DNA from: Gemmatimonadaceae bacterium
Lineage (GTDB): Bacteria > Gemmatimonadota > Gemmatimonadetes > Gemmatimonadales > Gemmatimonadaceae
Assembly: GCA_036003045.1 (NCBI GenBank)
Contig: DASYSS010000090.1
Coordinates: 1 to 50,140 of the forward strand
Reading direction: 5' to 3'
Length of the DNA stretch: 50,140 nt
Each line of letters begins with the position of its first letter. Position 1 is the stretch's first letter. A program made the translations under genes and the position numbers. Positions 23,950 to 42,902 of the stretch are shown piece by piece. A model generated the notes under the pieces. The model saw only the letters and a program-made list of their open reading frames with translations. It did no database searches and was not told the DNA's origin.

Positions 23950-24058
23950 CGGCGTAAGTAGGGGACTCGGGGTGTTTAGAAAGTGGGAAATATTTTCGAA
24001 GTAGCCAAAGTGGGCTCGGCGACAGCCTATAAGTAGAGGGGCCCGCGTGATCCGACTG

Positions 24059-24121
24059 GAGCGCTCATTTTTGCGCTTTCAGGCAGCCAACGATATTCTG
24101 TGGCCGTTCCGATGCCGGAAC
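24059..24121 (+). promoter_or_regulatory. Conserved leader of metallopeptidase copy 1
   Basis: This leader contains GAGCGCT, an AT-rich stretch, GCGCTTTC (a short hairpin), and then GTTCCGATGCCGGAAC at 24106-24121, a 6-bp inverted repeat. The same elements in the same order precede the second metallopeptidase. In copy 2 this stretch is interrupted by stops in the peptidase frame, so it is a leader and not coding. Confidence 0.5.
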
Positions 24122-24177
24122 CGCATCGAAACAGGGTCGCGAAGACCCCCCTGCGAATATCCGGGCGGAAGACCGCG

Positions 24178-26619
24178 ATGGCGGTGAACTTCATCCTCTG
24201 GAATGACGAGAGCGGCTACGACGTTCACGTGGTCGCGGGATCGACGTCGCCAGCACTAGACGCGGATCTGAGAATCAACCACGGTACTCCGCCCGTGGAG
24301 ATCAGCGCGACCGATCCGCTTCCGACGGGGGTGTCGATCACGTTTCGCGCGGCGTTCAACGGGGCTGATTCCGGCGTGAACTTTTCCGGATTCGGTGTGA
24401 CCGTGAACCAGAACACGGGTGCCGTCACCGCGGCGAACCCGCTTCCCGGGGCGCCCTTCCTTCACAACTTCCTGATTCACGCGACGGTGACCGACGCGTC
24501 GGTCGCGCCGCCCAAGACGTTCGTGGTGAAGGTGCGCGTCCACATTCACAACGCCGTCGTTGCGGCCTGGCTCACTCCGAACCCGTTGTCGATCCACCGT
24601 GGGGCCGATGGCCAGCGCTTCACGGTGCTCGCCCAATTCGACGACCAGACCGTTGGCGACATCACTCGTGTGCCCGGGCTCGCGTGGACGAGTGGAGGGG
24701 CGGAGGTCGACGCCAACCCGGCGACCGGCGCGCTCAAGGCGACGCAAGACATCACGGCGACCGTGAACATCACCGTCACGCTGCCGGCCGCGTGGGGAGG
24801 CACGAGCGCGACGGCGGCGTGCAACACGCTGGCGGCATGGTCGCCGCCCGACCGCAACGCGAAGCTCATCGCGGGGAGCGCGGGCCCCGCTCGCATGGCC
24901 GACGTGCTCAACTTCATCTTCGTCGCCGAGGGATTTCAACTCGGCGAAGACGGGCTGTTCGAGCAGCGTGCTCAGGCATTCGCGACCTTCCTGCGGACGT
25001 CGCCGGCCGTCCAGCCATACGGGATGTGCTCAGGAGAGATCAATTATTGGATGCTCTCGCTCGAGTCGCGCACACGCGGTACGAGTCCGCTCTACGAGGT
25101 GGTGCCGCTCGCCCGCGGCGCAAAGACGGTTGGCCAGAAAGTCCCGCAGCCCGAGGACCCGCAGGGCGCGGCGGGCATATGGACGACCGCGCAGGCGATT
25201 CACGAGATCGGACTGCCTGTTCGCGCGCACCTGGGAGTCGCGCTGGCCGCCCAGCAAGCTGAGTGGGCGACGCTTTTCGGACCGGGAATCGCGGCCCACA
25301 TCGATGCACAGGCGCAGGCGGATTGGCTCGACTATGCCGACCGGACACTCGTCAACGAAACGGACACCGCGCTCGGTCTCGCGCTTGGCGAACGCCCGCG
25401 CGTCGAGCAGAGCTCACCGCCGCGCGTCGTCTCGTGGCATCCATTGCGGACCACCCGCGCGCAATTCGAACCGATGTTGGTCAACGTAAAAGACGCGGCC
25501 AATGTCGGCGGGGGCGCGATCGGCGCGGTGTGGGGACCGGGCGGCAAAGACCGGAGATTCGTCATCGCAATCTGCGCCGGAACGCGGGACGGCGGGGGGC
25601 AATCCGACCCGCCGGATGAGCTCATCGCCTCCAGTCTCAACGGAGACGAGGAAGTGGAGTTGGCCGCAATCGTTGGCAGTCGTGGATTCAACCTGGTGCC
25701 CTACGCCCTGCCGCCGGACGCGCCGCTCAACAGTCAGTGCACGGTGGCGCACGAGAGTGCGCACGCCCTTGGCCTCGGCGACGAATACGGGGAGGCCGGA
25801 TCGCTGCCGGCTTCGGAGGTCGCCGACGTGGTTCAATTCCAGAATCTGAGTGTTGTAACGGACGTCGCGGTGCCGGGCCCGAAGATCGACCCGACACGGC
25901 TCAAGTGGATTTGGCCTCGCATCACGAAGGCGGGGGTACTGACGGGCGCTCTCATTCCACAGGGCGCAGAGTTCCGAGTCCCGCTTCGCCCGGGGCACGA
26001 GCGACCGTTCGTCGTGGGCGAAAAGGTCAAACTCCGTCAACGGCCCCTCGTCGCGGGGATCATCGCGAGCGTCGAGCTCGAGGTGACCTCGGTGGACCAA
26101 ATCACGCATCAGGTGCAAGTGAAGGCCGCGATCCCAATCGCGCCGATTACTTGGCAGGCGGGAAGCATCCTGTTCGCCGAGAAGCATGCAGCAGCCGGCG
26201 GCGCGGTGCTCGGTCTCATCTCGCCCACCGTTCTCGCGCACATCACGACGACCGGACTTCCGCTCAACGTGGCGGCCGGCGGGCCGGCTCCCCACGTGTG
26301 CACGCCCGACGGCAACGCGGTGCAGCCGGCGCTGAACCGTCCGGCGACGTTGCCGGCCGGGAAGCCCAAGTGGAGTGCGTGGATCGTGGGTGCGTTCGAG
26401 GGCGGCAAGACGTATGGTTGCGGCGTGCTTCACCCGACGGGCGCCTGCATGATGCGGTACCTCGTCCTGGACGAAATCACGGCGCAGGCCACGTTCAAGG
26501 TGAAGGACGTCGCATACCGTTTTTGCCCGGTGTGCCGGTACATCCTGGTCGACCGCCTCGACCCGACGCAGCACGGCAAGAACGACGCGTGGTACGACTC
26601 GCGATACGCCGAGCCCTGA
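24178..26619 (+). CDS. M64-like zinc metallopeptidase, copy 1
   Basis: This 813-residue protein starts at ATG 24178, where it aligns with its paralogue; an open extension to 24100 covers the leader. About 230 N-terminal residues are beta-rich and Ig-like. The region MADVLNFIFVAEGF opens a domain like that of peptidase family M64 (IgA protease type). The zinc site is H525-E-S-A-H529-A-L-G-L-G-D535, an HExxHxxGxxD arrangement followed by EY. Near the C-terminus come a GCGVLHPTGACMMR turn (about 747-760) and FCPVCRY (about 781), both typical of this family. There is no signal peptide. It opens the large cluster; a substrate, perhaps one of the giant neighbours, is inference. Confidence 0.75.
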   Translation: MAVNFILWNDESGYDVHVVAGSTSPALDADLRINHGTPPVEISATDPLPTGVSITFRAAFNGADSGVNFSGFGVTVNQNTGAVTAANPLPGAPFLHNFLIHATVTDASVAPPKTFVVKVRVHIHNAVVAAWLTPNPLSIHRGADGQRFTVLAQFDDQTVGDITRVPGLAWTSGGAEVDANPATGALKATQDITATVNITVTLPAAWGGTSATAACNTLAAWSPPDRNAKLIAGSAGPARMADVLNFIFVAEGFQLGEDGLFEQRAQAFATFLRTSPAVQPYGMCSGEINYWMLSLESRTRGTSPLYEVVPLARGAKTVGQKVPQPEDPQGAAGIWTTAQAIHEIGLPVRAHLGVALAAQQAEWATLFGPGIAAHIDAQAQADWLDYADRTLVNETDTALGLALGERPRVEQSSPPRVVSWHPLRTTRAQFEPMLVNVKDAANVGGGAIGAVWGPGGKDRRFVIAICAGTRDGGGQSDPPDELIASSLNGDEEVELAAIVGSRGFNLVPYALPPDAPLNSQCTVAHESAHALGLGDEYGEAGSLPASEVADVVQFQNLSVVTDVAVPGPKIDPTRLKWIWPRITKAGVLTGALIPQGAEFRVPLRPGHERPFVVGEKVKLRQRPLVAGIIASVELEVTSVDQITHQVQVKAAIPIAPITWQAGSILFAEKHAAAGGAVLGLISPTVLAHITTTGLPLNVAAGGPAPHVCTPDGNAVQPALNRPATLPAGKPKWSAWIVGAFEGGKTYGCGVLHPTGACMMRYLVLDEITAQATFKVKDVAYRFCPVCRYILVDRLDPTQHGKNDAWYDSRYAEP

Positions 26620-26694
26620 GCGACAACAACCAGGGCAGCGCCCTGAGAATCGCTGCCCGTCGGGCGCCAAGCCGATGAGAATGGGGCGAGATTA

Positions 26695-26760
26695 GAGCGC
26701 TTTAATTTTTGCGCTTTCAACCGGTCGGCGGTATTGTGTGGCCGGTTCCGATGCCGGAAC
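26695..26760 (+). promoter_or_regulatory. Conserved leader of metallopeptidase copy 2
   Basis: This leader repeats the copy-1 layout: GAGCGC, TTTAATTTTTGCGCTTTC, then GTTCCGATGCCGGAAC at 26745-26760. About 120 bp in total up to the start codon align with 24059-24180, ending in the identical GGGCGGAAGACCGCGATG. Conservation in both copies, while neighbouring bases changed, argues for function. Confidence 0.5.
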
Positions 26761-26817
26761 GCGCGTCGAAACTGAACGGCAAACAGCCCCCGTGAAGATC
26801 CGGGGCGGAAGACCGCG

Positions 26818-29262
26818 ATGGCGGTGAACTTCACCTACTGGCTGGGCGAGAACGGCTACGACATTCACGTCGTCGCCGGAACAACCTCGCCCTCGCTACT
26901 CCCTGCTCTCGCAATCAATCACGGCACGCCGGCGGTGAACGTCGCGGCGACCGGCCCGTTACCGGCCGGCGTGACGGTGGCGTTTCAGGCGGCGTTCAAC
27001 GGGGCCTTGGTCGGTGGTGGGCCGAACTTCGCAGGGTTCGGCGTGACGGTCGACCAGAACACGGGAGCAGTGACAGTCGCCAATCCGATCCCCGGCCCCC
27101 CCTTCCTCCGCAATTTTCTGATTCGCGCCGTGGTGACTGACCCCGCGATCGCGCCGCCGTTCGTCAAGAAGGTCCGGGTGCACATACACAATGCCGTCAC
27201 GCGGATTTGGCTCACTCCGAACCCATTGTCGATCCGCCGCGGCGCCGACGGACAGCGCTTTTCCGTGCTGGCCGAGTTCGACGACCAGACCGTCGGCGAC
27301 GTCAGCCGGCTGCCCGCGTTGGTGTGGTCGAGCGGAGGGGCGGAGGTCAGCGTCGACGCGGCCACAGGTGGGCTCACGGCGACGCAAGATATCACGGCGT
27401 TCGTGCCGATTACGGTCACATTGCCCGCCGCCTGGGGAGGCGCGAGCGCAACGGCGACGTGCAACACGTTACCCGCATGGTCGCCACCGGACAGGAACGT
27501 GAAGCTGATCGCGGGGAGCGCGGGCGCCGCTCGCATGGCCGATGTGGTGAACTTCGTTTTCGTCGGCGAGGGGTTTCAGGTCGGTGAGGAGCCGATGTTC
27601 GAGCAACGCGCGCAGGCGTTCGCGACGTTCCTGCGGACGTCGTCGGCTGCTCAGCCGTATGGCATATGCTCAGGAGAGATCAATTACTGGATGCTCTCGC
27701 TCGAGTCCCCGGATCGTGGGAGCAGTCCACTATATGAAATCGCACCCGTCACCCGCGGCGCGAAGACATTCGGACGGGAGGTGCCGCAGCCCGTGGATCC
27801 GCAAGCCGCGGCGGCAATATGGACGACCGCGCAGGCGATTCACGAAATCGGATTGCCTGTGCACGCGCATGTCGGAGTCGCGTTCAACGTGCAGCAGGCC
27901 GAGTGGACCGCGCTGTTCGGGGCAGGGGTCGCTGCACACGTCAATGCGGCGCTCCACACGGAGTGGCTCACTTATGCAGAGCGTCGACTCGTCAACGAAA
28001 CGGACACCGCGCTTGGCCTCCGTTGTGGTGAACGCCCTCGGGTGGAGCAAAGCTCGCCCCCTCGGGCGGGTGGATGGCATCCCTTCAGGACGACGCGTGC
28101 GCAGTTCGAGCAGATGCTCGTCAACCTGCGCGATGCGGCGGCGCCGGGTGGACCGGCGATCGGTGCCGTGTGGGGGCCGGGCGGAAAGGACAGAATTCTC
28201 GTCGCGGCGCTATGTGCCGGTGCCCGTAATGCCGGAGGCCGCACCCTGCCGCCGAACGATCTCATCGCCACGACCTTCGTCGTCAACAGCGAAGTCGAGC
28301 TGGCTCCCGTCGCGGGCACGCGCGGTTTCACGCTGGTCCCGTACGCCGTACCGGTAGACGCACCGCTCGACAGTCAGTGCACCGTCGCCCATGAGAGCGC
28401 ACACGCTTTGGGTCTAGGCGACGAATACGGATCCGCGGGATCGCTGCCGGCTTCCCGTGTCGCCGACGTAGCCGCGCGCTTGAACCTCCAGGACGTTGCG
28501 AGTGTCGCGGTACCGCCGCCTGCTCTCGATCCGACACGCCTCAAATGGACGTGGCCGCGCATTACGAAGGCCGGGGTGCTTACTGGTCCTCTGACTCTAC
28601 AAGGCGCCGAATTCCGCATCCCGCTGCGTCCCGGTCACGAGCGGCCTTTCGCAGTCGGCGACAAGGTCAAGCTTCGTGAGCGGCCGCTTACTGCCGCCGT
28701 CATTCCGAGCATCGAGCTCGAGGTAACGGTTGTCGACGCAGCGACTCATCAAATTCAGGTGAAGGCCGGAGGCGTCTTCGTACCGGTTACGTGGGGGGCA
28801 GGCAGCATCGTCTTCGCTGAAAAACACGCACCGGGAGCCGGCGGCGCCGTGCTCGGTCTCATTTCGCCGACCGTTCTCGCGCACATCACGGCAAACGGGA
28901 TTCCGCTCAACGTCGCACCCGTCGCGCCCGCGGCCCACGTCTGTGCGGCCGACGGCCGGACGGTGCAGCCGGCCCTAAGTCGCCCGGCGGCGTTGCCCGC
29001 CGGCAAGCCAAAATGGAGCGCGTGGATTGTCGGCGCGTTCGAAGGTGGGCTAACGTATGGCTGCGGCATCCTGCATCCCACCGGCGCGTGCATGATGCGA
29101 CAACTTCTGCTGCCAGAAGGCGCGGCGCAGGCCGAATTCAAGGTAAAAGAAGTCGCATACCGATTTTGTCCCGTCTGCCGCTACGCGCTCGTGGATCGCA
29201 TCGATCCGACGCAGCACGGTAGAAACGACGCGTGGTACGACTCGAGATACGCTGAGCCGTGA
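26818..29262 (+). CDS. M64-like zinc metallopeptidase, copy 2
   Basis: This 814-residue paralogue of the preceding gene is alike along its whole length. The zinc motif H525-E-S-A-H529 with the following GLGDEY is intact, as are CMMR and FCPVCRY. Differences concentrate in loops, such as GGRTLPPNDL versus GGQSDPPDEL, so both copies look functional and selected. It has no signal peptide. Its stop overlaps the next gene's GTG by 4 nt (GTGA at 29259-29262), tying this copy translationally to the giant-protein genes; copy 1 is separated from it by about 200 nt. Confidence 0.75.
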   Translation: MAVNFTYWLGENGYDIHVVAGTTSPSLLPALAINHGTPAVNVAATGPLPAGVTVAFQAAFNGALVGGGPNFAGFGVTVDQNTGAVTVANPIPGPPFLRNFLIRAVVTDPAIAPPFVKKVRVHIHNAVTRIWLTPNPLSIRRGADGQRFSVLAEFDDQTVGDVSRLPALVWSSGGAEVSVDAATGGLTATQDITAFVPITVTLPAAWGGASATATCNTLPAWSPPDRNVKLIAGSAGAARMADVVNFVFVGEGFQVGEEPMFEQRAQAFATFLRTSSAAQPYGICSGEINYWMLSLESPDRGSSPLYEIAPVTRGAKTFGREVPQPVDPQAAAAIWTTAQAIHEIGLPVHAHVGVAFNVQQAEWTALFGAGVAAHVNAALHTEWLTYAERRLVNETDTALGLRCGERPRVEQSSPPRAGGWHPFRTTRAQFEQMLVNLRDAAAPGGPAIGAVWGPGGKDRILVAALCAGARNAGGRTLPPNDLIATTFVVNSEVELAPVAGTRGFTLVPYAVPVDAPLDSQCTVAHESAHALGLGDEYGSAGSLPASRVADVAARLNLQDVASVAVPPPALDPTRLKWTWPRITKAGVLTGPLTLQGAEFRIPLRPGHERPFAVGDKVKLRERPLTAAVIPSIELEVTVVDAATHQIQVKAGGVFVPVTWGAGSIVFAEKHAPGAGGAVLGLISPTVLAHITANGIPLNVAPVAPAAHVCAADGRTVQPALSRPAALPAGKPKWSAWIVGAFEGGLTYGCGILHPTGACMMRQLLLPEGAAQAEFKVKEVAYRFCPVCRYALVDRIDPTQHGRNDAWYDSRYAEP

Positions 29263-32200
29263 GCGACGACGACGCCGGGACCATCGAGCTCATCGTCGAG
29301 CAGCTGGCGATCGCCGCCCAGCCGCTCAAAGACGCCGTCGCCACGCCCGACACGTTCCGCGCGTTCATTCTGCGGCTCGGGTGGGACGCGCAATCGCTGC
29401 CGCCGGCGTGGGCCGCGCTCGCGGCGAAAGTCGACGACGTCGTCACGGCGCTCGAGGCGTTGCAGTCGGCGGCCGGCATCGACGCGGCGCTCCGCGCGCT
29501 GGACAAAGTCGCGGCGCTGTACAATGCCATCAAAGCGATCAGCGCCGCTCCACCAGGCGTCGATCCGGTCGCGTTTCTCGAAGAGATCGGCGATCGCCTG
29601 TTCGAGCTGCTCCTCGTCGACTACCTGACGGTCGCGCAGCCGCTGGCGGCGTCGCTCTTCAGAGCCTGCGGCGTCATAACGGAGACGATGCACGAGGAGG
29701 CGAACGGGCGGCCGGCGCACGTCGAGACGCGTTTTCGGTTCGACGAGCTGGGGAACATCATCAGCGACCCCGGCTCGATTCCCAAACGTTTGTACGGCTG
29801 GGGCACCGACGAGATCAACTTCGCTCTCCTGGGGCGACAGCTGCACGATCTCGCGACGGCGTTCGATCTCCTGACGCGATTCGGACCGGCCGACCCGGTG
29901 CTCGCGGCGGGGCTTCAGGGGCCGCCGGCTCAAACGACGCGCGCCATCTCGTCGCAGCTCTCGATTCCGCTGGCTGAATTCGACATCGCGGGAACACCGG
30001 TCGAAGTGGGGTTGGCGCTGCTCGAGCTGCCGGCGGAAGGTTCGCATCCGGCAGGCCTCATCATCCAGCCGCTGATGCCGTCGCAGATCGGGGCGCAGGT
30101 GCCCATCACCCCCGAGTGGACTGTCTACGTTCGCGCGGGCAGCGACATCGCTCGCACGTTCGGACTGCTCATTCGCCCCGACGGCGTGGACGTGCGCTAT
30201 CCGTTCCAACCCGGGACGGCGCCGCCGAGTGAAGGCTTCAGCGCCGGCATCGAATACGCACCGGCGTCGCCGGTCGCGCTGATCGGAAAGCAAGACGAGT
30301 CGCGGCTGCAAATCGCGAAAGTCCGCACGGACCTCGGCCTCGATCTGCACGGAACCGACGTCGAGCTCTGGCTCCAGGCGCAGACCACCGGTCTCGCGAT
30401 CGTCATCGCCCTCTCGGAGCAGGACGGCTTTCTCGGCAAGCTGTTCGGCGGCCAGGATCTCACGATCAACTTTCCGCTGAGCGCGCGCTGGTCGAGCAAA
30501 CAAGGATTCACGTTCGTCGGCGGCGCTGGGCTCGAGGTCACGGTTTCACCGCACCTCGATCTGGGTCCGATCTCCATCGACCAAGTTCATTTCGGTCTGT
30601 TGGCCGCGATCGGAAGCGGGCAGCCCGGATCGGTCTCGGTCATCGTGGATGTTTCGATCAGCGGCGCACTCGGACCGTTCGCGTTCGCGGTCGAGGGGAT
30701 CGGCGTCGGCCTCGACGTGAAATTCGTCGCGGGCAACGCGGGGCCGTTCGACATCTCGCTCGGTCTGCGCGGACCGACCGGGCTCGGCGCCTCGATCGAC
30801 GCGGGGCCGGTCACGGGCGGCGGATTCCTCTCGTTCGATCGCGACGCCGGACGCTACGCGGGCATCCTTCAGCTCAAGATCTTCTCGATCGGCATCACGG
30901 CGATCGGGCTGCTCGACACGAAGCTGCCCGGTGGCCAGTCCGGCTTCTCGCTGCTGGTCATCATCACGGTCGAGTTTCCGCCGATTCAACTTGGCTACGG
31001 ATTCACGCTCAACGGGGCGGGCGGTCTCGCGGGCGTCAATCGCACGATGGTGGTTGACGCGATCCAAGCGGGGGTACGGAACCACTCCGTCGACCACATT
31101 CTCTTCCCGCAGGACCCGATCAGGAACGCTCCGCAGATCATCAGCGATCTGCGCACGATCTTCCCCCCCGCCGAAGGCCGGTACGTGTTCGGGCCGATGG
31201 CGATCATCGGATGGGGAACGCCGACGCTGATCAAGATCGAGTTGGGGATCATGATCGAGGTTCCCGCTCCGATTCGTTTGGTGCTGCTCGGGCAGGTGAG
31301 CGTCGCGATTCCGACCGAAGACGAAGCGGTCGTGGCTCTCCACATCGACATCGTCGGCGTTCTGGACTTCGAGGGGAAGCAGATCTCGGTCGACGCGTCG
31401 ATTCACGATTCACAGATCGCCACCTTCCCGATCTTCGGCGACATGGCGTTTCGGCTCTCGTGGGGCGAGTCGCCGTCGTTCGCGCTGGCGGTGGGCGGGC
31501 TCAATCCGCGCTTCCAGCCGCCTCCGGGATTTCCGACGCTCCGGCGTCTCACGATCTCGATTGGGTTCGAGGACAATCCGCGAATCTCGATTCAGGGCTA
31601 TTTCGCGGTCACGTCGAACTCGCTGCAGTTCGGCGCCCTCGCCGAGGTCTACGCCGAAGCCGGAGGCTTCAACATTTATGGATGGCTCGGCTTCGACGCC
31701 CTACTGATATTCGTTCCACTCTCGTTCACCGTGGACATCAGCGCCGGCGTGGCGCTGCGCCGCGGGACGAGCACGATCGCCGGCATCAAGCTGCACGGCA
31801 CGCTGAGCGGTCCGCGCCCGTGGCACATCGAAGGAGAAGCGTGCCTCTCGGTGTTGTTCTTCGACGTCTGCGTTCCGGTCAACAAATCGTTCGGCGAGGA
31901 CCAGCACGTCTCGATCCCGCCGGTGGACCCGTGGCCGGATCTGCGCGACGCCCTGCAGAACAGCCAGAATTGGAACGCCGTTCTTCCGTCGGGAGTCGCG
32001 CGAGCCGTATCGCTCGTCGCGGCGAGCGATTCGACGCTCGTGCTGCTCGACCCGGTAGGGGGCGCCGAAGTCCGCGAGAAAGTTCTGCCGCTCAACCGGC
32101 CGATCACCAAGGTCGGAGAAGCGACGCCGCTGGGTCCGAACGAATACGACGTAACCGGCGTTCAGGTCGGCGCCCACGCCGCGGCGACGTGGGGAACGAC

Positions 32201-32696: not shown

Positions 32697-32699
32697 GCG

Positions 32700-35600
32700 A
32701 TGAGCGACCCACTCGGTTCATACGCGTTCATGCCGTGGCTGCAGCGCGGTCTCGCGACCGAAATCACGCGCGTGGACGGTACGGCGTCGGCCGACACCAA
32801 TGTGCCGCTGCCGGTCGCCATCACGCTGAATCAAACGCTCACGGCGACGGCGCCTCTGGCGCTGTTCGGGCCGGGAGAGATCGGCGGGCTCGATCCGAGC
32901 GCCGTGATTCGCGTGTCGCCGACTCGCGAAGCGTACGACGCGGAGCCGAACTACTTCGCGCTCGTCGAGTTCGACCAGGCCGATCTTCCATGGAGATACA
33001 CGCCGGCGCGGGCGACGACGGCCGACCGGCTGCGGCCGTGGCTCTGCCTCGTGACACTGCGTGAGGACGAGCTCGTGTCGTTCGACGAATCGAGCTCCGA
33101 CGGAAAACTCGCTGTCGCCACGGTGAAAGATGCCGCGGCGCTGCCGCTGCTCGACCAGAGTTGGGCATGGGCTCACGTGCAGGTAGCGGGGGCGGGTTCG
33201 ACGCCGCCGGATGCGGCGGCGTTGCAGTCGCTACTGGCGACGGGTTCGGAAACGGTCATCTCGCGGCTCCTCTCGCCGCGCCGCCTCGACCCGAACGCTC
33301 GATACGTCGCGTGCATCGTCCCGACATTCGAGCGCGGCCGCCTCGCTGGATTGCGCGAGCCGGTCGTGGGCGACGCGATGGCGCCGGCATGGACAGCCGG
33401 ACAGTCGAACGTGCGGTTGCCTGTCTACTATAGATGGCGCTTCGGTACGGGGGCTGGGGTCGATTTCGAGTTCCTGGCTCGCCAGCTCAAGGGTCGTCCG
33501 ATTCCGCAGGGCGTCGGAACGCGGCCGATGGACGTGAGCGATCCCGGCTTGGGGCTGCCGAAAGCCGCGGACGGTCCGCTCTCACTCGAAGGCGCACTCT
33601 TGCCGCCGGGATTTGCGCGTCAGAGCGTTGCCGATCCAACGGCGTCGAACTTCGAAACGAAGCTTGCCGAACTGCTGAATAGGCCGGCGGACCTGTTGAC
33701 CGCCACTGGCGGCACGCGCGTCGTCGCGCCGCCGCTCTACGGCCGTTGGTACGCGAAATCCGAACGGCTCTCGACCGCGGCAGGCGCAAAGCCGCCATGG
33801 TTCAACGAATTGAATGCCGAAACGCGCTTTCGCGTTCCATCGGGCCTCGGCACGCAGGTTGTTCAAGCCGAGCAACGGCAGCTCATGGCGAGCGCGTGGG
33901 ACCAGGTGAAGGGAATTCGCGAAGCCAACGAGCGGTTGCGCCAAACGCAGCTCGCGCGAGAGGCCGCTCTGCAGGTGTTCGCGCGGCATTTGCGCGGCGA
34001 TGGAACCGACAGCCTTCACATTTTCAACGTCACGGCGGCACTGCACGCGAAGGTGAAGGGCAGCCCGACGACGATCGCGGCGCTGACAGCCGGGAGCCCG
34101 ATCGCACGCGGCACGATGGAGGCGGTATTTCGCCGCATCAGCCGGCCGCTCGGCCCGCTTGGCCGCCGTCTCGGATATTCGGCGAATCCGACGCGCGTGA
34201 ATGCGATCGCGTCGCGCATGAACAGCGGCGCGATCACGGTGAAGCCGCCAAAACTTCCCGGAGGCATCGTCTCGCCGGGAACGGCGAAAGCGCCGACGAT
34301 CCCGCAGGCGCCGCCATCGCCGGCGCATGGCATGGGCGGACGATGGCTCTGGATCGTTGCGATTCTCCTCATGATCGCGGCCGTCGTGCTCGGCATGATG
34401 GGTCTTGGCATCCTCACGGTGGTCGCCGCGGTCGCGGCCGGCGTCACAGCATTTTCCGCCTGGTCGGTGTCGCGCGCGGAGGCACAACGCGCGGCGCAGT
34501 CGGCGGCTCGCGAGGCCGCTCACGTAGAAGCGTTGCGCGAATTTGCGGCGGGGCATCTCACGGCGGATTCGTTGCGCGCCGCACAACCCACAGCGGGTTT
34601 TGTTCCGCGCGCCGAAGCACGACTGGGCGGCCCGTCGCCGGGCGCACCACCGGTTGCCGCGGCCACGGCGGCGGCCGCCGCACAAGCCGTCGAGCGCTTT
34701 CGCACGGCGTCGATGGCACTCCTGGCAAAGACCGCGACACCGCCGGTTCGCCCGCCGGATCTCGTGCGAATATCGGTGGCCGACCTTTCGAAAAAACTCA
34801 TCGCAGGGCTCGATCCGCGGCTGACTGTGGTCGCCGGGGTGCGCGATCGGTTGAAGCTGCCACCGACGGCGACACAACCCGGCGGCGACGCCGTGGAGCC
34901 AGTGATGGCCGCGCCGGAATTTCCACAGCCGATGTACGCGCCGCTGGCGGCACTGTCCTCCGAGTGGCTGCTGCCGGGGCTGGACAAAGTTCCGCAGAAC
35001 ACCACGTCGCTCCTCGTGACGAACCAGGAGGGATTCGTCGAGCCCTACATGGTCGGGCTCAATCAGGAGATGGCTCGGGAGCTTCAGTGGAACGAATACC
35101 CGACCGATCTGCGCGGCAGCTATTTCCGCCAGTTCTGGGACGTGGCGACAGCGGCGAGCGGACAGAGCGCCGCGGTCGTCGAGAGTCTCAAGGACATCAA
35201 CCCGCTGCACGAGTGGAACGGGAACGACCTCGGAAAGAATCGTCCGAAGCCGCCGGCGAGCGGGGACTATCTCGTGTTGCTCGTGCGGGCGGAGCTGCTG
35301 CGGCGCTATCCCAACACGATCGTGTACGCCTGCAAGGCGAAGGGCGGAGCGTCGGGGCGTGAGCTCACCGACCAGACCGAGTTTCCGCTGTTCAGCGGCC
35401 GGCTCGAGCCCGACGTGACTTTCTTTGGGTTCGACCTGACGGCGGCCGAGGTGAAGGGAGACGACAATACCGCATCGCCGAATCAAGGATGGTTCTTCGT
35501 CCTGCAAGAGCAGCCATCCGAGCCTCGCTTCGGCCTCGACATCGCGGACGGCCCACTCGGCGGCGCGCCGGCATCGTGGTCCGACCTGAGTTGGGGAAGC

Positions 35601-35813
35601 GTCGCCGGATCCGACGCCGACCTCGCGGCGATCACGTACCTCGACCTCGACGAACAGCTTCCAGATACGAGATCAGTAACGAGCACCGGCGGCGCCTCGT
35701 GGCACGCCGACGCCGGACTCGGGACCACGGGAAGCAAGTCGTCGCATTTGGCCTACATCACGCTCCAGCAGCCGATGCGCGTCGCGATTCACGGCTCTGA
35801 CATGCTCAGCTGA
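32700..35813 (+). CDS. Conserved hypothetical giant protein with a membrane hairpin, 1037 aa
   Basis: I know no function for this protein. The N-terminal third carries EPNYFALVEFDQADLPW and RLRPWLCLVTLRED, and the C-terminal third carries EPYMVGLNQEMARELQW, YPTDLRGSYFRQFWD and WFFVLQEQPSEPRFGLD. I recall such phrases in uncharacterised proteins of other bacteria. Between them, residues of about 548-582 form two adjacent hydrophobic helices (WLWIVAILLMIAAVVLGMMG and a second one) flanked by proline- and alanine-rich linkers. This is the only obvious membrane segment in the giant-protein set. It starts 3 nt after the previous stop, so it is cotranslated with it. It may anchor the complex to the inner membrane. 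Confidence 0.6.
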   Translation: MSDPLGSYAFMPWLQRGLATEITRVDGTASADTNVPLPVAITLNQTLTATAPLALFGPGEIGGLDPSAVIRVSPTREAYDAEPNYFALVEFDQADLPWRYTPARATTADRLRPWLCLVTLREDELVSFDESSSDGKLAVATVKDAAALPLLDQSWAWAHVQVAGAGSTPPDAAALQSLLATGSETVISRLLSPRRLDPNARYVACIVPTFERGRLAGLREPVVGDAMAPAWTAGQSNVRLPVYYRWRFGTGAGVDFEFLARQLKGRPIPQGVGTRPMDVSDPGLGLPKAADGPLSLEGALLPPGFARQSVADPTASNFETKLAELLNRPADLLTATGGTRVVAPPLYGRWYAKSERLSTAAGAKPPWFNELNAETRFRVPSGLGTQVVQAEQRQLMASAWDQVKGIREANERLRQTQLAREAALQVFARHLRGDGTDSLHIFNVTAALHAKVKGSPTTIAALTAGSPIARGTMEAVFRRISRPLGPLGRRLGYSANPTRVNAIASRMNSGAITVKPPKLPGGIVSPGTAKAPTIPQAPPSPAHGMGGRWLWIVAILLMIAAVVLGMMGLGILTVVAAVAAGVTAFSAWSVSRAEAQRAAQSAAREAAHVEALREFAAGHLTADSLRAAQPTAGFVPRAEARLGGPSPGAPPVAAATAAAAAQAVERFRTASMALLAKTATPPVRPPDLVRISVADLSKKLIAGLDPRLTVVAGVRDRLKLPPTATQPGGDAVEPVMAAPEFPQPMYAPLAALSSEWLLPGLDKVPQNTTSLLVTNQEGFVEPYMVGLNQEMARELQWNEYPTDLRGSYFRQFWDVATAASGQSAAVVESLKDINPLHEWNGNDLGKNRPKPPASGDYLVLLVRAELLRRYPNTIVYACKAKGGASGRELTDQTEFPLFSGRLEPDVTFFGFDLTAAEVKGDDNTASPNQGWFFVLQEQPSEPRFGLDIADGPLGGAPASWSDLSWGSVAGSDADLAAITYLDLDEQLPDTRSVTSTGGASWHADAGLGTTGSKSSHLAYITLQQPMRVAIHGSDMLS

Positions 35814-35822
35814 GATTCGACC

Positions 35823-38800
35823 ATGCCGAATCCGAAACCAGGCGCCAGAGAAAGGATCGCGGCCGCGCGGCAGGCACTGGCCGCGCGTATCGGTCCGACA
35901 AACGACGGCTCGCAGGATGTCGCGCGTCTCGATGCGGGATTTCCCATTCTGCTTGTCCCGGTTCGCCTGGAGACTCGATTTGGCACTGACCAGGACGGCC
36001 CGGTTCTTCGCGTGCGGATCTACCCGGACGATTTCGCCGCCGACCTGCACGAGGCCGCGCTGACCGACGACGAGCGCGCGTTAGGCAAGCAATATTGGAC
36101 GGACGGCTGGCAGCCGAACGACGAGCTCAATGCGTGGCGCGCCCTGATCCGAATGTTGCCGGAGCCCCGCGCGGCGTGGGTCGTCGCGTCGATGACGCCG
36201 ACGAACATGTCGAGTCGCCCGGGTGCTCCGCCCGTCTTTCCGAATCCCGCGGCTCGCCCCGACGTGTGGACGAGGGCGGCGTACGCGAAGGTTCTTCCGG
36301 ATCGATGGGTTGTCATTTGTACGCGCGGGGCGAACAGCACGACGGCGGTCAGCAAGCCGGTTATCGAACCGCTGGCGCTCACGCTCTCGCCGAGTGCCGA
36401 CGCGTCGAATCCGGCGGACGTCGTGGACCTCAGCGACGGGATGACGGTGGATCGTGAGATGTTGTGGACGATCGACTATGACGAGGCCGAGAAGGCCGGC
36501 ATGGCGGTCACCATTTCGCTGAAGGACGACGATGCGAGGCTGGGCTTCGAGCGAGTGATCGCCGTCGGGGTGAAAAGCTCTCTCGCGTCCAAGGATCCCA
36601 AAGCGCCGCAGACAGGCGGTGCACCAGCGGAGGGCGCGTCGCGCCTCGCCGAGTTGCTCGACGCGCATCACTATGGCCGCGGGCTGGCGATCGTGGCGCA
36701 GGGAACGCCGACAAACAACACGGCCGCGGGAGGATCGGGCTATCCACCGCCCGATCCGGACGGCACGGTGTCGTTCGCTGTGGAGCGCGGTGCCCCACTA
36801 GCCGCGGACGGTACGGACGGCGCTGCGCTCGCGGCCGCCCTCGGTTTGCCGGCGTCGACCTTCGATCACATCGAGGGCGCCGATCGGCACGAAGGCGACC
36901 ATGCACGCGCGATGAACGGTCTGCTCTGGCCGGCAACCGGCGGGTACTACCTGGAGCAGATGCTGCCGCCGGTCTCGAACGCCGAGACCACGCGTCAACT
37001 CGAGTCGTACTTCGTGCAGCACGTGCGCGGCAACGGATCGCTCCCGCTCTTCCGAGTGGACGCGACACCGTATGGCGTGCTGCCCGTGACGTCGCTCGAT
37101 CGATGGGCGGCGCGTGCGGGAACGACCGAGCCGCAGGCTCTCGTCGCGAAAGTAGTCGGCGCCCTGCGCCCGAAATGGACGCAGCAAGCCGGCAACGTGC
37201 CGCGAGTCGGACGCACGCAAGATCCGGATCAGGACCTGCTCGACATTCTCGCCGGCGACGCGAGCGCCCGCGAAGTATGGATTCGCGACGTGCTCGGCCC
37301 GGTGTTCGTTCGCAATCTGGCGGACTTCCTCGGGGCGGACATCGGGTCATGGGTTCAGCAGGCCAACGCCGTGCGCGCACAGCTCGTCGCTCTGTTCAAT
37401 CAGCTCGGTGAGCAACCGAGAATCATGGAGATGTTGTTCAGCGCCGACGCGTTTCGGTTTCGCCATCCGTTGGTCGCGCCGACGCCGTTGTCGGAAACTG
37501 ACCCGCTGGACTTCAACTATCTGCGTTGGTTGAGGAGCGCGTCTCTCGCCGACGTTCGCGACCAGAACTTTCCGGCCGGCGCAGCGGCTCCCAATGCGCT
37601 CCTGTATCAGCTCGCGCGAGTTGCGTTGCTGCGGCAGTACGCGAACGCCGCGATCGACCTTTCGGTGCGCGCGCGCGCGGCAACCGTCGCGGAGCGACTC
37701 GACCGGGAGCTCGTCGGCGTAGCGGCCGGCGACGCCACACCGACGGTCTGGCAGCGCCTCGATGCCAAGCTGCCGGCCGTCACTCGCACCGAGTCGGTCG
37801 GCGACTATCTGCAACGCTCGGCGAACGCGCAGCGGGTGGTCGCGTCCGGCAGAGCAGTCGCCGTGACGTCGATCGACGGCCGTTCGCCCGGCGCGGTCGT
37901 CGAAGCGACTCCCATCGCGTCGGCACTCGAGAATCTCGAGATGCTGCAGGGTGTTCCCGAAGCTGAGCTCGATCGGTTGTTCGGCAACACGCTCGACTGC
38001 GCGGCGCATCGCCTCGACGCGTGGGCAACGTCGCTCGCTGCCGCGCGTCTCGATGAGCTTCGTGCATCGAAGCCCAGCGGCATTCACCTCGGGGCATACG
38101 GCTGGGTGGAGAACCTGGTGCCGGCGCCGCAACGCAACGTCGTCGTCAAACGGCCGGACGGCACGCAGGTGACGATGCAAGCCGACAGCGGCGGATTCGT
38201 GCATGCGCCGTCGATGGATCACGCATCGGCCGCGGCCATTTTGCGCAACGCGTATCTCACGAGGCGAGGGGACGAACAGCAACGATACGCGCTCGACCTT
38301 TCCTCGTCGCGCGTGCGCGCGGCTCGCTGGCTGCTGGCGTGCATTCGCGAGGGACAACCGCTCGCCGCGCTGCTCGGATATCAGTTCGAGCGCGGGCTGC
38401 ACGAGGGACACGCGCCGCTCGAGCTCGACCAGTTCATCGAGCCGTTCCGCCTCCGGTATCCATTGCCGGAAGTCAAAGGCGCGACCTCCACGGATCCCGC
38501 GCAGTCCATCTCTCCCCGGAACGTGGTGAACGGGCTCGATCTCCGGAACGCCAAGCGGGACGACACGCTGTTTTCATCGCTGCCGGTAGCGCCGAACAAC
38601 GACGAGCGGGCAGCGATTCTCGCCGAGTTGGCGGCGCTCGACGAAACGTTGGACGGAGTCGCCGACGTGTTGACGAGCGAAGCCGTGTACAACCTGGTGC
38701 GCGGGACAACGGAGGGCGCGGCGGCGAGTCTCGATTCGCTGGCACAGGGCGTTCGCCCGCCCGACCCCGGGGTGTCGCATACTCCGCGAGCGGGCACGCT

Positions 38801-40607
38801 CGTCGCGCATCGCGTCGGCGCCGTGTTCGGAGCGACGCCCGTCGCGTCGCCGGGATGGGACGCGATCGCCGCCACGCCTCGCGCGGCCGCTGAACCGTGT
38901 CTCGATGCCTGGGTGGGAACGTTGCTGGGTTCTCCAGCGCAAGTACGCTGCGACGTGACCGTTGCCGATCCATCGACGGCGAACCCGGACAGGCAACGCG
39001 TCGTCACGATCACGTTCGACAAGCTCGGCCTGCATCCGCTCGACCTGCTCGCCATCGTCGCGAACGCCGACGCGAACGCGGCGTCGGTCACCGCCAATCC
39101 GCATCGCGACGACGCGTCGGCGAAACCGTCTGAGCTCGATCTCCGCATTCTCAACGTCGCTCTCGCCGACCCCGCTCTCGCCGACGCGACGCTGCGAGGG
39201 AGCGCGTCGATCGCGTACGTGCGCGATCCGGCGTGGGCGGCGGCGACGCGATCGGTCGGCGAATTGTTGGAGATGGCCCGCGCCGTGAACGACGTTCTGC
39301 AATCGGCGCGGGCGCTTCAACCGTCCGACCTCGTGACGCCGGAAGGCGCCGCGGGAACGACGTTCGTCGTGGACGACGCCGACGCCGCCGCTCGCGTTTC
39401 CACGGCGAAAACAGCACTCGACCAGACGAAAACGGCGCTCGACGCGGCCGTGGCGGCGATCCCCCCTGTGCCACCAGGCGGCCCGGAACCGGACCTGTCG
39501 CCGCTGCGCGACGTCCTTCGGCGAGCGGCGGCGTTTGGAATCGCGTCGGCGTACCCGGGCGCACCGAACAAAACGCTCGACCGGGCGAAAGCTCTGCTCG
39601 ACGCGCGCATCGCGGCGCTGCCAAACCCGCCGAAGCCGGCCGACATGCCGCCGATTCGCGATGCGCTAAGGCGCGCCGCCACGTTAGGAATCGCCGTCGG
39701 ACCCAAGGATGTGATGGTGGACGCCACGAACCGCGACGTGGCCACGACGATTGGCGCCGCGAACAACGCATCGACTTCGCTCGGCGCCGCCATCACTACT
39801 GCGCGGCAGCGCGATCGCGAGGCTCTCGTCGCTCTCGCCAAATCGGTCTCCGCGGAAATGGGCCGGCGTTCTTCGGGCGTCGCGCCGGCCAACGCCGCGC
39901 CGGATAACGCCAAGGCGGTGTTCGGCGGCAATTTCATGCTGCTGACCAGATTCGTGCCACACGAGCAGGTGGAATTGCAAAAGGCGCTGGCGTATGGACC
40001 GACGCTGGCGCCGGACGACGAGGCCAAACGCCGCTGGCTGGCCCAGGCGGCGCGCGTTCGCGTGAGCCTGGGGCGGTGGCGGATGGTGGAGCTTTACAGT
40101 TCTTGCATCGACGCCGCTCCGCCCCCGCTCAGCATCGCTCAGCTCCCACATGCCGACCCGGCGAGCTGGGTTGCGCTCCCATTCGCCGACGAGAGCAAGC
40201 GGCCGCCGTCGGGGCGCGTCGCGCTGGCGGTCGTGCGCTCGGCCAAGCCGGCGGCAACAGATCCGTGGGTCGGTCTCCTGTTCGACGAGTGGACGGAGAT
40301 GATTCCGGCGGTGCAGGAAAGCACCGGTGTCGCGTTCCACTACGACGATCCCGGAGCCGAGGCGCCGCAAACGATGCTGCTCGCCGTTCCGCCGAAGCCG
40401 GATGCCAAGTCGTGGGACTTGCCGACGCTGCTGGCCATTCTCAACGAAACGTTCGATCTGGTGAAGGTGCGCGGCGTGCACAACGATCTCTTGGGGGACC
40501 TCGGCCAACTGCTGCCCGCCGTCTTCGCTCCGGTGAACGCCGAGCGAGAAACCGTGAGTGTAGACCTGAGTCAGGCGCGGGCCCTCAGCGCCGCGGTGCG
40601 AGCGTAG
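35823..40607 (+). CDS. Conserved hypothetical giant protein, 1594 aa
   Basis: This is the longest gene here; I do not recognise a characterised domain. Near the N-terminus is FPILLVPVRLETRF followed by LRVRIYPDDFAADLHE, and in the last 250 residues come FGGNFMLLTRFVPHEQVEL and LLFDEWTEMIPAVQESTG with APQTMLLAVPP. These fit a conserved but uncharacterised family, from memory. Residues of about 1190-1330 contain two related helical segments (PLRDVLRRAAAFGIA and PIRDALRRAATLGIA), likely an internal duplication. There is no signal peptide and no membrane helix, and the protein is alanine-rich and acidic. It starts 9 nt after the previous stop. A structural or scaffold role is plausible but unproven. 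Confidence 0.6.
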   Translation: MPNPKPGARERIAAARQALAARIGPTNDGSQDVARLDAGFPILLVPVRLETRFGTDQDGPVLRVRIYPDDFAADLHEAALTDDERALGKQYWTDGWQPNDELNAWRALIRMLPEPRAAWVVASMTPTNMSSRPGAPPVFPNPAARPDVWTRAAYAKVLPDRWVVICTRGANSTTAVSKPVIEPLALTLSPSADASNPADVVDLSDGMTVDREMLWTIDYDEAEKAGMAVTISLKDDDARLGFERVIAVGVKSSLASKDPKAPQTGGAPAEGASRLAELLDAHHYGRGLAIVAQGTPTNNTAAGGSGYPPPDPDGTVSFAVERGAPLAADGTDGAALAAALGLPASTFDHIEGADRHEGDHARAMNGLLWPATGGYYLEQMLPPVSNAETTRQLESYFVQHVRGNGSLPLFRVDATPYGVLPVTSLDRWAARAGTTEPQALVAKVVGALRPKWTQQAGNVPRVGRTQDPDQDLLDILAGDASAREVWIRDVLGPVFVRNLADFLGADIGSWVQQANAVRAQLVALFNQLGEQPRIMEMLFSADAFRFRHPLVAPTPLSETDPLDFNYLRWLRSASLADVRDQNFPAGAAAPNALLYQLARVALLRQYANAAIDLSVRARAATVAERLDRELVGVAAGDATPTVWQRLDAKLPAVTRTESVGDYLQRSANAQRVVASGRAVAVTSIDGRSPGAVVEATPIASALENLEMLQGVPEAELDRLFGNTLDCAAHRLDAWATSLAAARLDELRASKPSGIHLGAYGWVENLVPAPQRNVVVKRPDGTQVTMQADSGGFVHAPSMDHASAAAILRNAYLTRRGDEQQRYALDLSSSRVRAARWLLACIREGQPLAALLGYQFERGLHEGHAPLELDQFIEPFRLRYPLPEVKGATSTDPAQSISPRNVVNGLDLRNAKRDDTLFSSLPVAPNNDERAAILAELAALDETLDGVADVLTSEAVYNLVRGTTEGAAASLDSLAQGVRPPDPGVSHTPRAGTLVAHRVGAVFGATPVASPGWDAIAATPRAAAEPCLDAWVGTLLGSPAQVRCDVTVADPSTANPDRQRVVTITFDKLGLHPLDLLAIVANADANAASVTANPHRDDASAKPSELDLRILNVALADPALADATLRGSASIAYVRDPAWAAATRSVGELLEMARAVNDVLQSARALQPSDLVTPEGAAGTTFVVDDADAAARVSTAKTALDQTKTALDAAVAAIPPVPPGGPEPDLSPLRDVLRRAAAFGIASAYPGAPNKTLDRAKALLDARIAALPNPPKPADMPPIRDALRRAATLGIAVGPKDVMVDATNRDVATTIGAANNASTSLGAAITTARQRDREALVALAKSVSAEMGRRSSGVAPANAAPDNAKAVFGGNFMLLTRFVPHEQVELQKALAYGPTLAPDDEAKRRWLAQAARVRVSLGRWRMVELYSSCIDAAPPPLSIAQLPHADPASWVALPFADESKRPPSGRVALAVVRSAKPAATDPWVGLLFDEWTEMIPAVQESTGVAFHYDDPGAEAPQTMLLAVPPKPDAKSWDLPTLLAILNETFDLVKVRGVHNDLLGDLGQLLPAVFAPVNAERETVSVDLSQARALSAAVRA

Positions 40608-40611
40608 ACCG

Positions 40612-42306
40612 ATGGCATCGATCACGTATTGGAACCGCCTCGAGCCTCGGCCGGTCGCGCCGTCGATCGCCGAGACGTTGGCCGCCCGCCTGCGCGATCC
40701 GCTCTGGCTGCTCACGCGCCAATGGCAGTTCGGCGAGTTTCAGGGAGAGGACGCCGGATCGCCGGCGTACGTCCACATCCACGCGGTGGGCATGCCGCTC
40801 ACCGCTTGGCGTCCGGGTGCCGGAGCTTGGCGTCCGCTCGACAACAGCGGGCCGATCGAGGCGATCGCGGAAGGAGAAGCGATCAGCGGAGATGATCTCT
40901 CGCTGCAAGTGGAGCTGGCCGAGGCGTTCGAACGATTGCTGCGCGCACGCGCAGACATCGATGGACCGGGAGCGGATGCGGTGATGAAGGAGTTGGTGGC
41001 CAAGCTGCCGTTGGCCGCGCCTCCTGCCGCGGACGCGATGGCGACGCGCTTCTATAGAGTGTGCGCGCCCCGCTCGTTCAATGGGGTGACTCTGTTTACG
41101 GCGTCGAGGCAAAATCCGCCGGTGCTGCCGCCAGGGGTAGCGATCGATCCGGCGAGTGCGGCTGCCGTCACCGGCGCGCAGAAGACGTTTGCCGCGTGGG
41201 TGAGCGATGCGTTCGGGAACATCGGCAGCGCCGACCCCGAAGCCTGGCAGCCCGATCGTCTCGAATATGAGTTCTCGATCGCCACGCGGACGAACAGCGG
41301 CGATCGCTTCGATTTCGACGCGCGTCCGGAGCTGGACGGAGCGATCGATTGGCACGAGCTCGACGTGGGATCGATCGACAAGAAGCAGCAGCCGCCCGCC
41401 GCCGACGCGCAGGTGATCGACCGGACGGTGATGCCGATCCACGTGCGTTTCCGCGGGATGCCGAACGCGCGGTGGTGGGATTTCGAGGACAGCCGGACGG
41501 ATTTTGGCGACTTGCGTCTCGACCGCCGCGATGTCGGGCGTTTGGTCGTCACGGACTTCATGCTCGTGCAGGGGAATGACTGGTTCGTCGTTCCGCTGGA
41601 GCTGCCGGTCGGATCGGTGTGCCGCGTGGACGAGCTGTCGGTGCGCGACGTATTCGGCGGTCTCACCTGGGTGCCGCGCGCGGACACCTCGGCAAGCGAC
41701 TCGTATGACAAGTGGACGCTGTTCACGTCGGCCGTGATCGACGCGCCGACAACGGTGGCTCCGCTGCTCGTGCTTCCGCCGAGCGTATCGGCGGCGATTC
41801 AGGTGGGCGACCCGATCGAGGATGTGCGGTTCTTCCGCGACGAGATGGCGAATCTGGTGTGGGCGGTGGAGCGAGTCGTGCCCGGTGGAGCGGGAGGAGC
41901 GTGGGCGGGGCAGGAGCGCAGTACGGCGATGGCGCCGGCGGGTTCTCCGGCGGCGGCCGGTCTGGTCTATCAGATTCAAACTCCGGTTCCGAGGAACTGG
42001 ATTCCGTTCCTGGCCGTGACGATCGACCCCGCGCGCGGGGACATCGCGCTGGAGCGGGCGGCGATGCTCGATTCTTCGGTTGCACCGCCGGTTCCGATAC
42101 CGCCGGTGGGTCGAGTCTTGAGACCGCACGGCGGAGTCGACCCGTATCGCGTGCGTGAAGAGGAAGTATCGCGCTCGGGCGTGAACGTTTGCCGCGTTTA
42201 CTGTCGCAGCCGGTGGATCGATGGGTCGACTTGGCTCTGGACCATGCGGCAGCGCCAGGCCGGCGCCGGGGAAGGAGCGAGCGGGCTCCAGTTCGATCGG
42301 GCGTAG
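40612..42306 (+). CDS. Conserved hypothetical protein, 564 aa, last gene of the large cluster
   Basis: The N-terminus reads YWNRLEPRPV, then RDPLWLLTRQWQFGEFQGED, a phrase I recall from uncharacterised proteins in other bacteria. The C-terminal part has NWIPFLAVTIDP, YRVREEEVSRSGVNV and WIDGSTWLWTMRQRQAG, ending GEGASGLQFDRA. It is tryptophan-rich and seems a compact soluble protein; there is no signal peptide, membrane helix or known active-site motif. It starts 4 nt after the 1594-residue gene, and its stop is followed directly by dispersed repeats, so it closes the operon. Function is unknown; its invariable packing with the giants suggests a stoichiometric partner. Confidence 0.6.
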   Translation: MASITYWNRLEPRPVAPSIAETLAARLRDPLWLLTRQWQFGEFQGEDAGSPAYVHIHAVGMPLTAWRPGAGAWRPLDNSGPIEAIAEGEAISGDDLSLQVELAEAFERLLRARADIDGPGADAVMKELVAKLPLAAPPAADAMATRFYRVCAPRSFNGVTLFTASRQNPPVLPPGVAIDPASAAAVTGAQKTFAAWVSDAFGNIGSADPEAWQPDRLEYEFSIATRTNSGDRFDFDARPELDGAIDWHELDVGSIDKKQQPPAADAQVIDRTVMPIHVRFRGMPNARWWDFEDSRTDFGDLRLDRRDVGRLVVTDFMLVQGNDWFVVPLELPVGSVCRVDELSVRDVFGGLTWVPRADTSASDSYDKWTLFTSAVIDAPTTVAPLLVLPPSVSAAIQVGDPIEDVRFFRDEMANLVWAVERVVPGGAGGAWAGQERSTAMAPAGSPAAAGLVYQIQTPVPRNWIPFLAVTIDPARGDIALERAAMLDSSVAPPVPIPPVGRVLRPHGGVDPYRVREEEVSRSGVNVCRVYCRSRWIDGSTWLWTMRQRQAGAGEGASGLQFDRA

Positions 42307-42320
42307 CGGTCACGCGCCGA

Positions 42321-42415: not shown

Positions 42416-42418
42416 CAT

Positions 42419-42831: not shown

Positions 42832-42838
42832 AGACCCC

Positions 42839-42891: not shown

Positions 42892-42902
42892 TCCAGCGAG
42901 GA

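What the first reader, a model, noticed from the sequence alone, without database searches (positions are those of the whole stretch)
24059..42306. Candidate undescribed system: two metallopeptidases plus four giant coupled proteins
An 18-kb single-strand block encodes two M64-like peptidases followed by 1145-, 1037-, 1594- and 564-residue proteins joined by gaps of 3-9 nt or overlaps. No ATPase, no secretion apparatus, no signal peptides and one membrane hairpin are seen. Tight packing implies one complex. From memory, the large proteins resemble families that occur in other bacteria but have no assigned function. Peptidases processing or releasing a giant cell-surface or envelope assembly is an inference that fits the content.
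Basis: partly seen in the sequence, partly recalled or inferred. Interest (0 to 1): 0.85.

Follow-up and report, generated by a model that had tools for sequence, protein, structure and literature searches.

The report
Four-protein chassis with swappable enzyme cargo
The window holds a member of an apparently undescribed gene module, found in at least 12 bacterial phyla and in haloarchaea, in which four large proteins of unknown function always occur together and carry an interchangeable enzyme (here two metallopeptidases) that appears to be matched to one end of the first large protein, so it looks like a general enzyme-carrying or enzyme-delivery machine.

Summary
Six open frames lie at 24100-42306 (+): two tandem M64-like metallopeptidases (74% identical, HExxHxxGLGDEY intact), then a DUF6603 protein (g3) and three large proteins of no known family (g4, g5, g6), spaced -4 to +9 nt. 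g3-g4-g5-g6 is an obligate module: wherever the contig allowed a test, g5 and g6 follow g4 (66/66 loci) and g3 precedes it (63/63), across at least 12 bacterial phyla and haloarchaea. The peptidases are not dedicated maturation enzymes. In relatives the same slot holds subtilases, trypsin-like proteases, phospholipase D, PhoD phosphatases or galactose/glyoxal oxidases. Enzyme class changes 23 times on the g4 tree but only 10 times (minimum 8) on the tree of g3 residues 1-430; the boundary near residue 480 is sharp. I infer that g3's N-terminus is a cargo-specific adaptor, and that its amphipathic beta-sheet plus g4 (membrane hairpin), g5 and g6 form a common chassis. Delivery of the enzyme to membranes or other cells is my best guess; it was not shown. 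No paper on DUF6603 was found in the held library. g4, although predicted well, matches no known fold.

The parts
24178..26619 (+). M64-like metallopeptidase, cargo copy 1 (ORF opens at GTG 24100; ATG 24178 is the likely start)
   Evidence: PF09471 20.4 bits (sub-threshold), HESAHALGLGDEY, 74% identical to copy 2 from residue 27 on
26818..29262 (+). M64-like metallopeptidase, cargo copy 2, overlaps g3 by 4 nt
   Evidence: homologues in the same slot in L016, L029, L037, L040
29259..32696 (+). g3, DUF6603 protein, 1145 aa
   Evidence: PF20248 6e-134; AF2 model pLDDT 80.5, pTM 0.53
29259..30698 (+). g3 residues 1-480: cargo-class-specific adaptor region (helical to about residue 220, then beta)
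   Evidence: co-varies with enzyme class, z 4.5-13.6 per 40-residue window up to residue 480 and about 0 beyond; tree needs 10 class changes against 23-24 for the chassis
30699..31892 (+). g3 residues 481-878: conserved amphipathic antiparallel beta-meander (core of DUF6603)
   Evidence: alternation of hydrophobicity 3.27 against 1.45 +/- 0.21 in shuffles
32700..35813 (+). g4, 1037 aa, no known family; AF2 model pLDDT 85, pTM 0.72, no fold match
34338..34547 (+). g4 residues 547-616: transmembrane hairpin and following long helix
   Evidence: hydrophobic hairpin in the window; 56 of 86 homologues have at least one hydrophobic segment, nearly all at the matching place; helices 546-566 and 571-616 in the model
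35823..40607 (+). g5, 1594 aa, no known family, largest chassis protein
40612..42306 (+). g6, 564 aa, no known family

Best explanation
A modular enzyme-carrying complex. Shown by comparison: a four-gene chassis (g3 DUF6603, g4, g5, g6) kept as a unit, preceded by one or more closely coupled genes for an enzyme whose class is exchanged freely between closely related chassis; when the enzyme changes, only the first 480 or so residues of g3 change with it. Inferred: the enzyme docks on that g3 N-terminal adaptor; the rest of g3, an extended amphipathic beta-sheet, together with g4 (membrane hairpin), g5 and g6 forms one large particle. Inferred with less certainty: the particle is released or displayed and brings the enzyme (protease, phospholipase D, phosphatase, copper oxidase) to or across a lipid membrane, by analogy with swappable-cargo toxin complexes. 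In the window's genome the cargo is a tandem pair of M64-like metallopeptidases.
For: Obligate linkage: 66/66 loci with g5+g6, 63/63 with g3 (61 within the distance limit plus L054 and L064, where g3 is present but overlaps or lies one gene away), 56/57 complete by the strict count; 5/5 from an independent g6 search in another phylum. Coupling: median spacings -4, +11.5 and -1 nt; the upstream gene lies within -100 to +60 nt of g3 in 56 of 60 cases. Swappable cargo with catalytic motifs: S8, trypsin GDSG, two HKD motifs, DDHE, HExxH. Class changes: 23 on the g4 tree, 24 on the DUF6603-domain tree, 10 on the g3 N-terminal tree, minimum 8, shuffled about 31.5. Sister cores such as L030/L042: g4 75% and g3 beta-domain 84% identical, g3 N-terminus 25%, trypsin-like against subtilase. 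Sharp boundary near residue 480 in five independent pairs. The adaptor regions of all seven classes tested are homologous (hhalign probability 94-100%). Amphipathic strands and best structural likeness to ApoB100 and porin sheets. TM hairpin in g4. A Kelch propeller, like that of the oxidase cargo, is fused to g3 in L064.
Against: No export route is seen: no signal peptides, no ATPase, no secretion genes. No physical interaction was measured; co-variation of g3's N-terminus with the neighbouring gene could in part be hitch-hiking in recombination. About a third of g4 homologues lack a hydrophobic segment (30 of 86). The g3 model has pTM 0.53 and all fold likenesses have large rmsd. No recurrent immunity gene, which argues against a toxin aimed at kin.
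Confidence: 0.55

Rival explanations
1. A scaffold that stays in the producing cell: g4 anchors the complex in the cytoplasmic membrane and keeps the matched enzyme there, with no delivery to other cells.
For: No signal peptides, no secretion genes, a TM hairpin in g4; occurs in monoderms and archaea.
Against: Cargo families (subtilase, galactose/glyoxal oxidase, tyrosinase) are typically exported in other contexts (general knowledge); 30 of 86 g4 homologues lack the hydrophobic segment.
Confidence: 0.22
2. A prokaryotic lipid-binding particle: the amphipathic DUF6603 sheet wraps lipid, like large lipid transfer proteins (ApoB), and the enzymes act on that lipid or ride on the particle.
For: Best VIA-align match is ApoB100 (Z 16.3, rmsd 11.8, 306 aligned) above porins at 13.8; the strands are strongly amphipathic and the hydrophobic face is poor in Tyr/Trp, unlike a typical porin; some g3 carry about 1000 residues more of beta repeats (L113).
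Against: Foldseek TM-scores 0.06-0.16, so only a general likeness; proteases and copper oxidases are not lipid enzymes.
Confidence: 0.12
3. Genomic hitch-hiking only: the enzyme gene and the 5' part of g3 are exchanged together by recombination because they are neighbours, without physical docking.
For: The enzyme gene lies directly 5' of g3, so a recombination tract would include g3's N-terminus.
Against: The boundary falls at the same place in five independent exchanges, and the association is kept over large chassis distances (window and L040: g4 35%, g3 N-terminus 36%, both M64); only the next gene's N-terminal region, never g4-g6, follows the class.
Confidence: 0.07
4. One reading: two peptidases mature or release a giant envelope assembly.
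For: Peptidases are adjacent and coupled in the window.
Against: Non-peptidase enzymes fill the slot in relatives.
Confidence: 0.02
5. A reduced contractile injection system or phage tail remnant.
For: Large proteins with a sparse, mosaic distribution.
Against: No sheath, tube, baseplate or ATPase gene recurs; no PHROGs match; no BFVD match for g4; no relatives in viral contigs.
Confidence: 0.02

Closest known systems
Pfam PF20248 (DUF6603, unknown function)
   Same: g3 residues 432-996 match at 6e-134
   Different: The Pfam entry as returned here names no function or partners; most of the 480-residue adaptor lies outside it. DUF6603 also occurs in giant single proteins without g4-g6 (L107, L108)
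Tc toxin complexes / ABC toxins (works-like only)
   Same: Conserved multi-protein body with an exchangeable enzymatic part (PMC7861908 abstract for Tc toxins)
   Different: None of the core proteins matches any Pfam family of Tc subunits; here the cargo is a separate gene with a matched adaptor at the N-terminus of the next protein
Extracellular contractile injection systems and T6SS
   Same: Swappable, adaptor-matched cargo (general knowledge)
   Different: No sheath, tube, baseplate or AAA ATPase
Peptidase family M64 (PF09471)
   Same: HExxH with LxDEY in both window cargo proteins and in L029, L037, L040
   Different: Pfam score below the gathering cut-off; a long N-terminal region outside the Pfam match
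ApoB / large lipid transfer proteins and porin beta-sheets
   Same: Long amphipathic antiparallel strands
   Different: No signal peptide, present in organisms without outer membrane; TM-scores 0.06-0.16

Membership tests
DUF6603 (PF20248) | Pfam score over the gathering cut-off | tested here: met
   447.8 bits against 27
Peptidase M64 (PF09471) | Pfam score over the gathering cut-off | tested here: not met
   20.4 and 21.0 against 26
Peptidase M64 (PF09471) | HExxH zinc motif with downstream LxDEY | tested here: met
   HESAHALGLGDEY at residues 551 and 525
Tc toxin complex | TcA/TcB/TcC protein families | tested here: not met
   No such Pfam family in g3-g6 at E <= 1
Rhs / polymorphic toxin | RHS/YD repeats and a variable C-terminus | tested here: not met
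   No RHS family in g3-g6; the variable part is at the N-terminus of g3
Contractile injection system / phage tail | Sheath, tube, baseplate and ATPase genes in the cluster | tested here: not met
   No PHROGs match of g3-g6 below E 0.1; no recurrent neighbour other than cargo-type genes in the loci
Outer-membrane beta-barrel | Signal peptide and restriction to diderms | tested here: not met
   No N-terminal signal; present in haloarchaea, Actinomycetota and Paenibacillus
Large lipid transfer protein / apolipoprotein | Homologous fold | tested here: inconclusive
   Z 16.3 to ApoB100 at rmsd 11.8; TM-score about 0.1 to ApoB100 entries
Known anti-phage defence systems | PADLOC profile | tested here: not met
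   Best E 0.41
Any solved protein fold (g4) | Foldseek or VIA-align match | tested here: inconclusive
   Best E 0.35 in PDB, 0.12 in BFVD; Z at most 5.3
Any known fold (g5, g6) | Fold comparison of a predicted model | not tested

The most novel reading that the evidence does not exclude
A previously undescribed, cross-domain class of enzyme-delivery particle: a four-protein chassis that bears no resemblance to contractile, Tc or Rhs systems, and loads one of many enzymes through a cargo-matched adaptor region that can be read off from sequence alone.
Probability: 0.4. Interest if true: 0.95.

Novelty: categorically new. Interest (0 to 1): 0.86.

Why it matters
It is a conserved module of four large unknown proteins in at least 12 bacterial phyla and in archaea, so it should do something general. 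The finding that one defined region of one protein follows the enzyme class turns four 'hypothetical proteins' into a testable machine with a predicted cargo-docking interface, and explains why peptidases, lipases, phosphatases and oxidases sit beside the same genes. If it delivers enzymes, it would be a further kind of prokaryotic delivery system with a natural library of cargos.

Tried and rejected
PADLOC and PHROGs profiles: nothing significant. Sequence search of PDB with profiles of g4-g6: nothing credible; g3's N-terminus only matches generic coiled coils and helical bundles. hhalign of g3-g6 with each other: no convincing shared domain, a weak g5/g6 hit only (probability 30%). Foldseek/VIA search of the g4 model in PDB and BFVD: no match; the list covered mainly residues 190-251 and 260-1034, so single domains may be missed. 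Viral contigs: no relatives; one 'Bacteriophage sp.' record from human faeces holds a g6 homologue and was set aside as probably bacterial. Papers: none of the held open-access texts contains DUF6603 or PF20248; wider term searches led nowhere. Independent promoters: the sigma-70 scan found none in 23000-42999, but it also expects few by chance and covers one promoter type only, so this is not evidence.

Full report
WHAT IS THERE. The first two are tandem M64-like metallopeptidases, 74% identical, with HESAHALGLGDEY in both. The next four, here g3 to g6, have 1145, 1037, 1594 and 564 residues and are spaced by -4, 3, 9 and 4 nt from the gene before. g3 is PF20248 (DUF6603, unknown function); g4, g5 and g6 have no significant match in Pfam, NCBIfam, PHROGs, PADLOC or the PDB sequences. 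The window belongs to a 5.37-Mb draft genome. Gemmatirosa kalamazoonensis appears among its family-level relatives (contig length and coordinates of G020 agree with NZ_CP007129.1), so the window is probably from a member of the Gemmatimonadaceae (inference).

DISTRIBUTION. A tblastn of g5 in plasmid records found the same four genes in the same order in Streptomyces, Rhizobium (with g4 and g5 each split in two), Gemmatirosa (g4 split in two frames) and two haloarchaea. A pattern scan of 84,980 genomes with g4 gave 264 confirmed relatives, of which the best 80 were kept. They come from 12 named bacterial phyla, haloarchaea and a few unplaced bins. Among loci with enough flanking sequence, g5 and g6 follow in 66 of 66; g3 precedes in 63 of 63 (61 within a fixed distance, plus L054 where frames overlap and L064 where one gene lies between); all four in 56 of 57 by the strict count. 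A search started from g6 in another phylum gave 6 of 296 genomes, and the five new ones all carry g3-g4-g5-g6 in order. In the window's own phylum DUF6603 is in 9 and g6 in 6 of 298 genomes, five have both; in the sixth g6 genome the contig ends next to g4. The 17 genomes checked each hold one g6. So the module is sparse, single-copy and intact. On the g4 tree phyla are mixed (28 label changes for 12 groups, minimum 11), which suggests transfer but does not prove it.

CARGO. In 56 of 60 cases the gene before g3 lies within -100 to +60 nt. These genes fall into unrelated families: subtilase S8, trypsin-like (GDSG, partly NAL1-type), PhoD-like phosphatase with DUF7800, phospholipase D, M64-like, galactose/glyoxal oxidase, and several with no Pfam match; tyrosinase and a beta-lactamase-type protein occur one or more genes further upstream. 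Catalytic motifs are mostly present. No other neighbour recurs widely, in particular no secretion, tail or ATPase gene. An 84-residue C-terminal domain is shared by the trypsin-like and S8 cargos. The peptidases of the window are therefore one choice among many, which removes the idea that they serve only to process the large proteins.

THE ADAPTOR. For 44 loci with a labelled enzyme and full-length core I asked which regions are more alike between loci with the same enzyme class than their chassis distance predicts. g3 residues 1-140 and 141-430 stand out (z 10.7 and 13.0, no shuffle of 500 as high); g3 432-880 and all regions of g4, g5 and g6 do not (z -2.8 to 0.9; g3 881-1145 z 1.8). In 40-residue windows the signal runs to residue 480 and then vanishes. 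Trees say the same: 10 class changes on the g3 N-terminal tree (minimum 8), 24 on the DUF6603-domain tree, 23 on the g4 tree, about 31.5 when shuffled. In five closely related pairs with different enzymes, identity in g3 jumps at the same place. The N-terminal regions of all seven classes tested are nevertheless homologous (hhalign probability 94-100%). The simplest reading is one adaptor fold, diversified to fit each enzyme. Label shuffles do not respect relatedness, but the neighbouring regions under the same shuffles serve as internal control. Hitch-hiking recombination is a rival; the constant boundary and the persistence over distant chassis speak against it as the whole story. Enzyme classes were assigned by me from BLAST clusters and Pfam hits of representatives.

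STRUCTURE. g3 (AF2, pLDDT 80.5, pTM 0.53): a helical N-terminus, then 42 strands between 232 and 878. Strands of the conserved part alternate hydrophobic and polar residues far beyond chance (3.27 against 1.45 +/- 0.21). The nearest structures are the ApoB100 sheet (Z 16.3, rmsd 11.8) and porins (Z 13.8), general likenesses only. Occurrence in haloarchaea and Gram-positives and the lack of a signal peptide argue against an ordinary outer-membrane barrel. g4 (pLDDT 85.0, pTM 0.72) is confidently modelled but has no match in PDB or BFVD; it carries a hydrophobic hairpin in the middle, and 56 of 86 homologues carry at least one hydrophobic segment, nearly all at that place. In Rhodococcus rhodnii (L064) a Kelch propeller similar to the oxidase cargo is fused to the C-terminus of g3.

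HOW IT MOST LIKELY WORKS. Shown: obligate four-gene chassis, exchangeable enzyme, class-matched g3 N-terminus. Inferred: physical docking and one complex. Guess: the complex brings the enzyme to or through a lipid membrane outside the producing cell. For: exo-enzyme cargos, amphipathic sheet, hairpin, variety of cargos as in weapons or scavenging tools. Against: no visible export route and no immunity gene. I give 0.55 to the modular enzyme-carrying complex as stated, of which the delivery step is the weakest part, and 0.22 to a membrane scaffold inside the producer.

KNOWN OR NEW. It works somewhat like swappable-cargo toxin complexes but is a member of none: defining genes of Tc toxins, Rhs proteins and contractile systems were tested and not met. 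No held paper mentions DUF6603 or PF20248; subscription journals and preprints were not searchable, so a description elsewhere cannot be excluded.

Noticed in passing
window 8665-20482: Four serine/threonine protein kinase genes with TPR or PD40 repeats lie close together, one of them (8665-11376) on the minus strand.
   Followed up: no
window 22096-23220: A short protein with a bacterial Ig-like (Big_2) domain and an N-terminal hydrophobic stretch ending in AAC (lipoprotein-like) lies upstream of the cluster.
   Followed up: no
L107 2365-13290 and L108 5018-15175: In relatives of the window genome DUF6603 also occurs inside giant single proteins of 3642 and 3386 aa without g4-g6; no other Pfam domain is found in them.
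   Followed up: partly
L102 / L008: In Gemmatirosa kalamazoonensis g4 is split between two reading frames, so the module there may be broken or the sequence in error.
   Followed up: no
upstream cargo genes in 19 loci, e.g. L042:3771-6557 residues 824-906: An 84-aa C-terminal domain (WHRxxGPAF...) is shared by trypsin-like and subtilase cargos that are otherwise unrelated.
   Followed up: partly
L113 11928-18536: g3 of one genome is 2203 aa, with about 1000 residues of repetitive beta-like sequence before the DUF6603 part.
   Followed up: partly
L005 22056-24776: g6 of the haloarchaeon Salinigranum is 907 aa and is annotated as a lamin tail domain protein; it extends well beyond the g6 match at its C-terminus.
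   Followed up: no
L016 3938-6541: The second of two tandem M64-like cargos in Verrucomicrobium lacks HExxH, so it may be inactive or structural.
   Followed up: no
MT835531.1 (hit H14): A record named 'Bacteriophage sp.' from human faeces holds a g6 homologue; probably a bacterial contig filed as phage.
   Followed up: no
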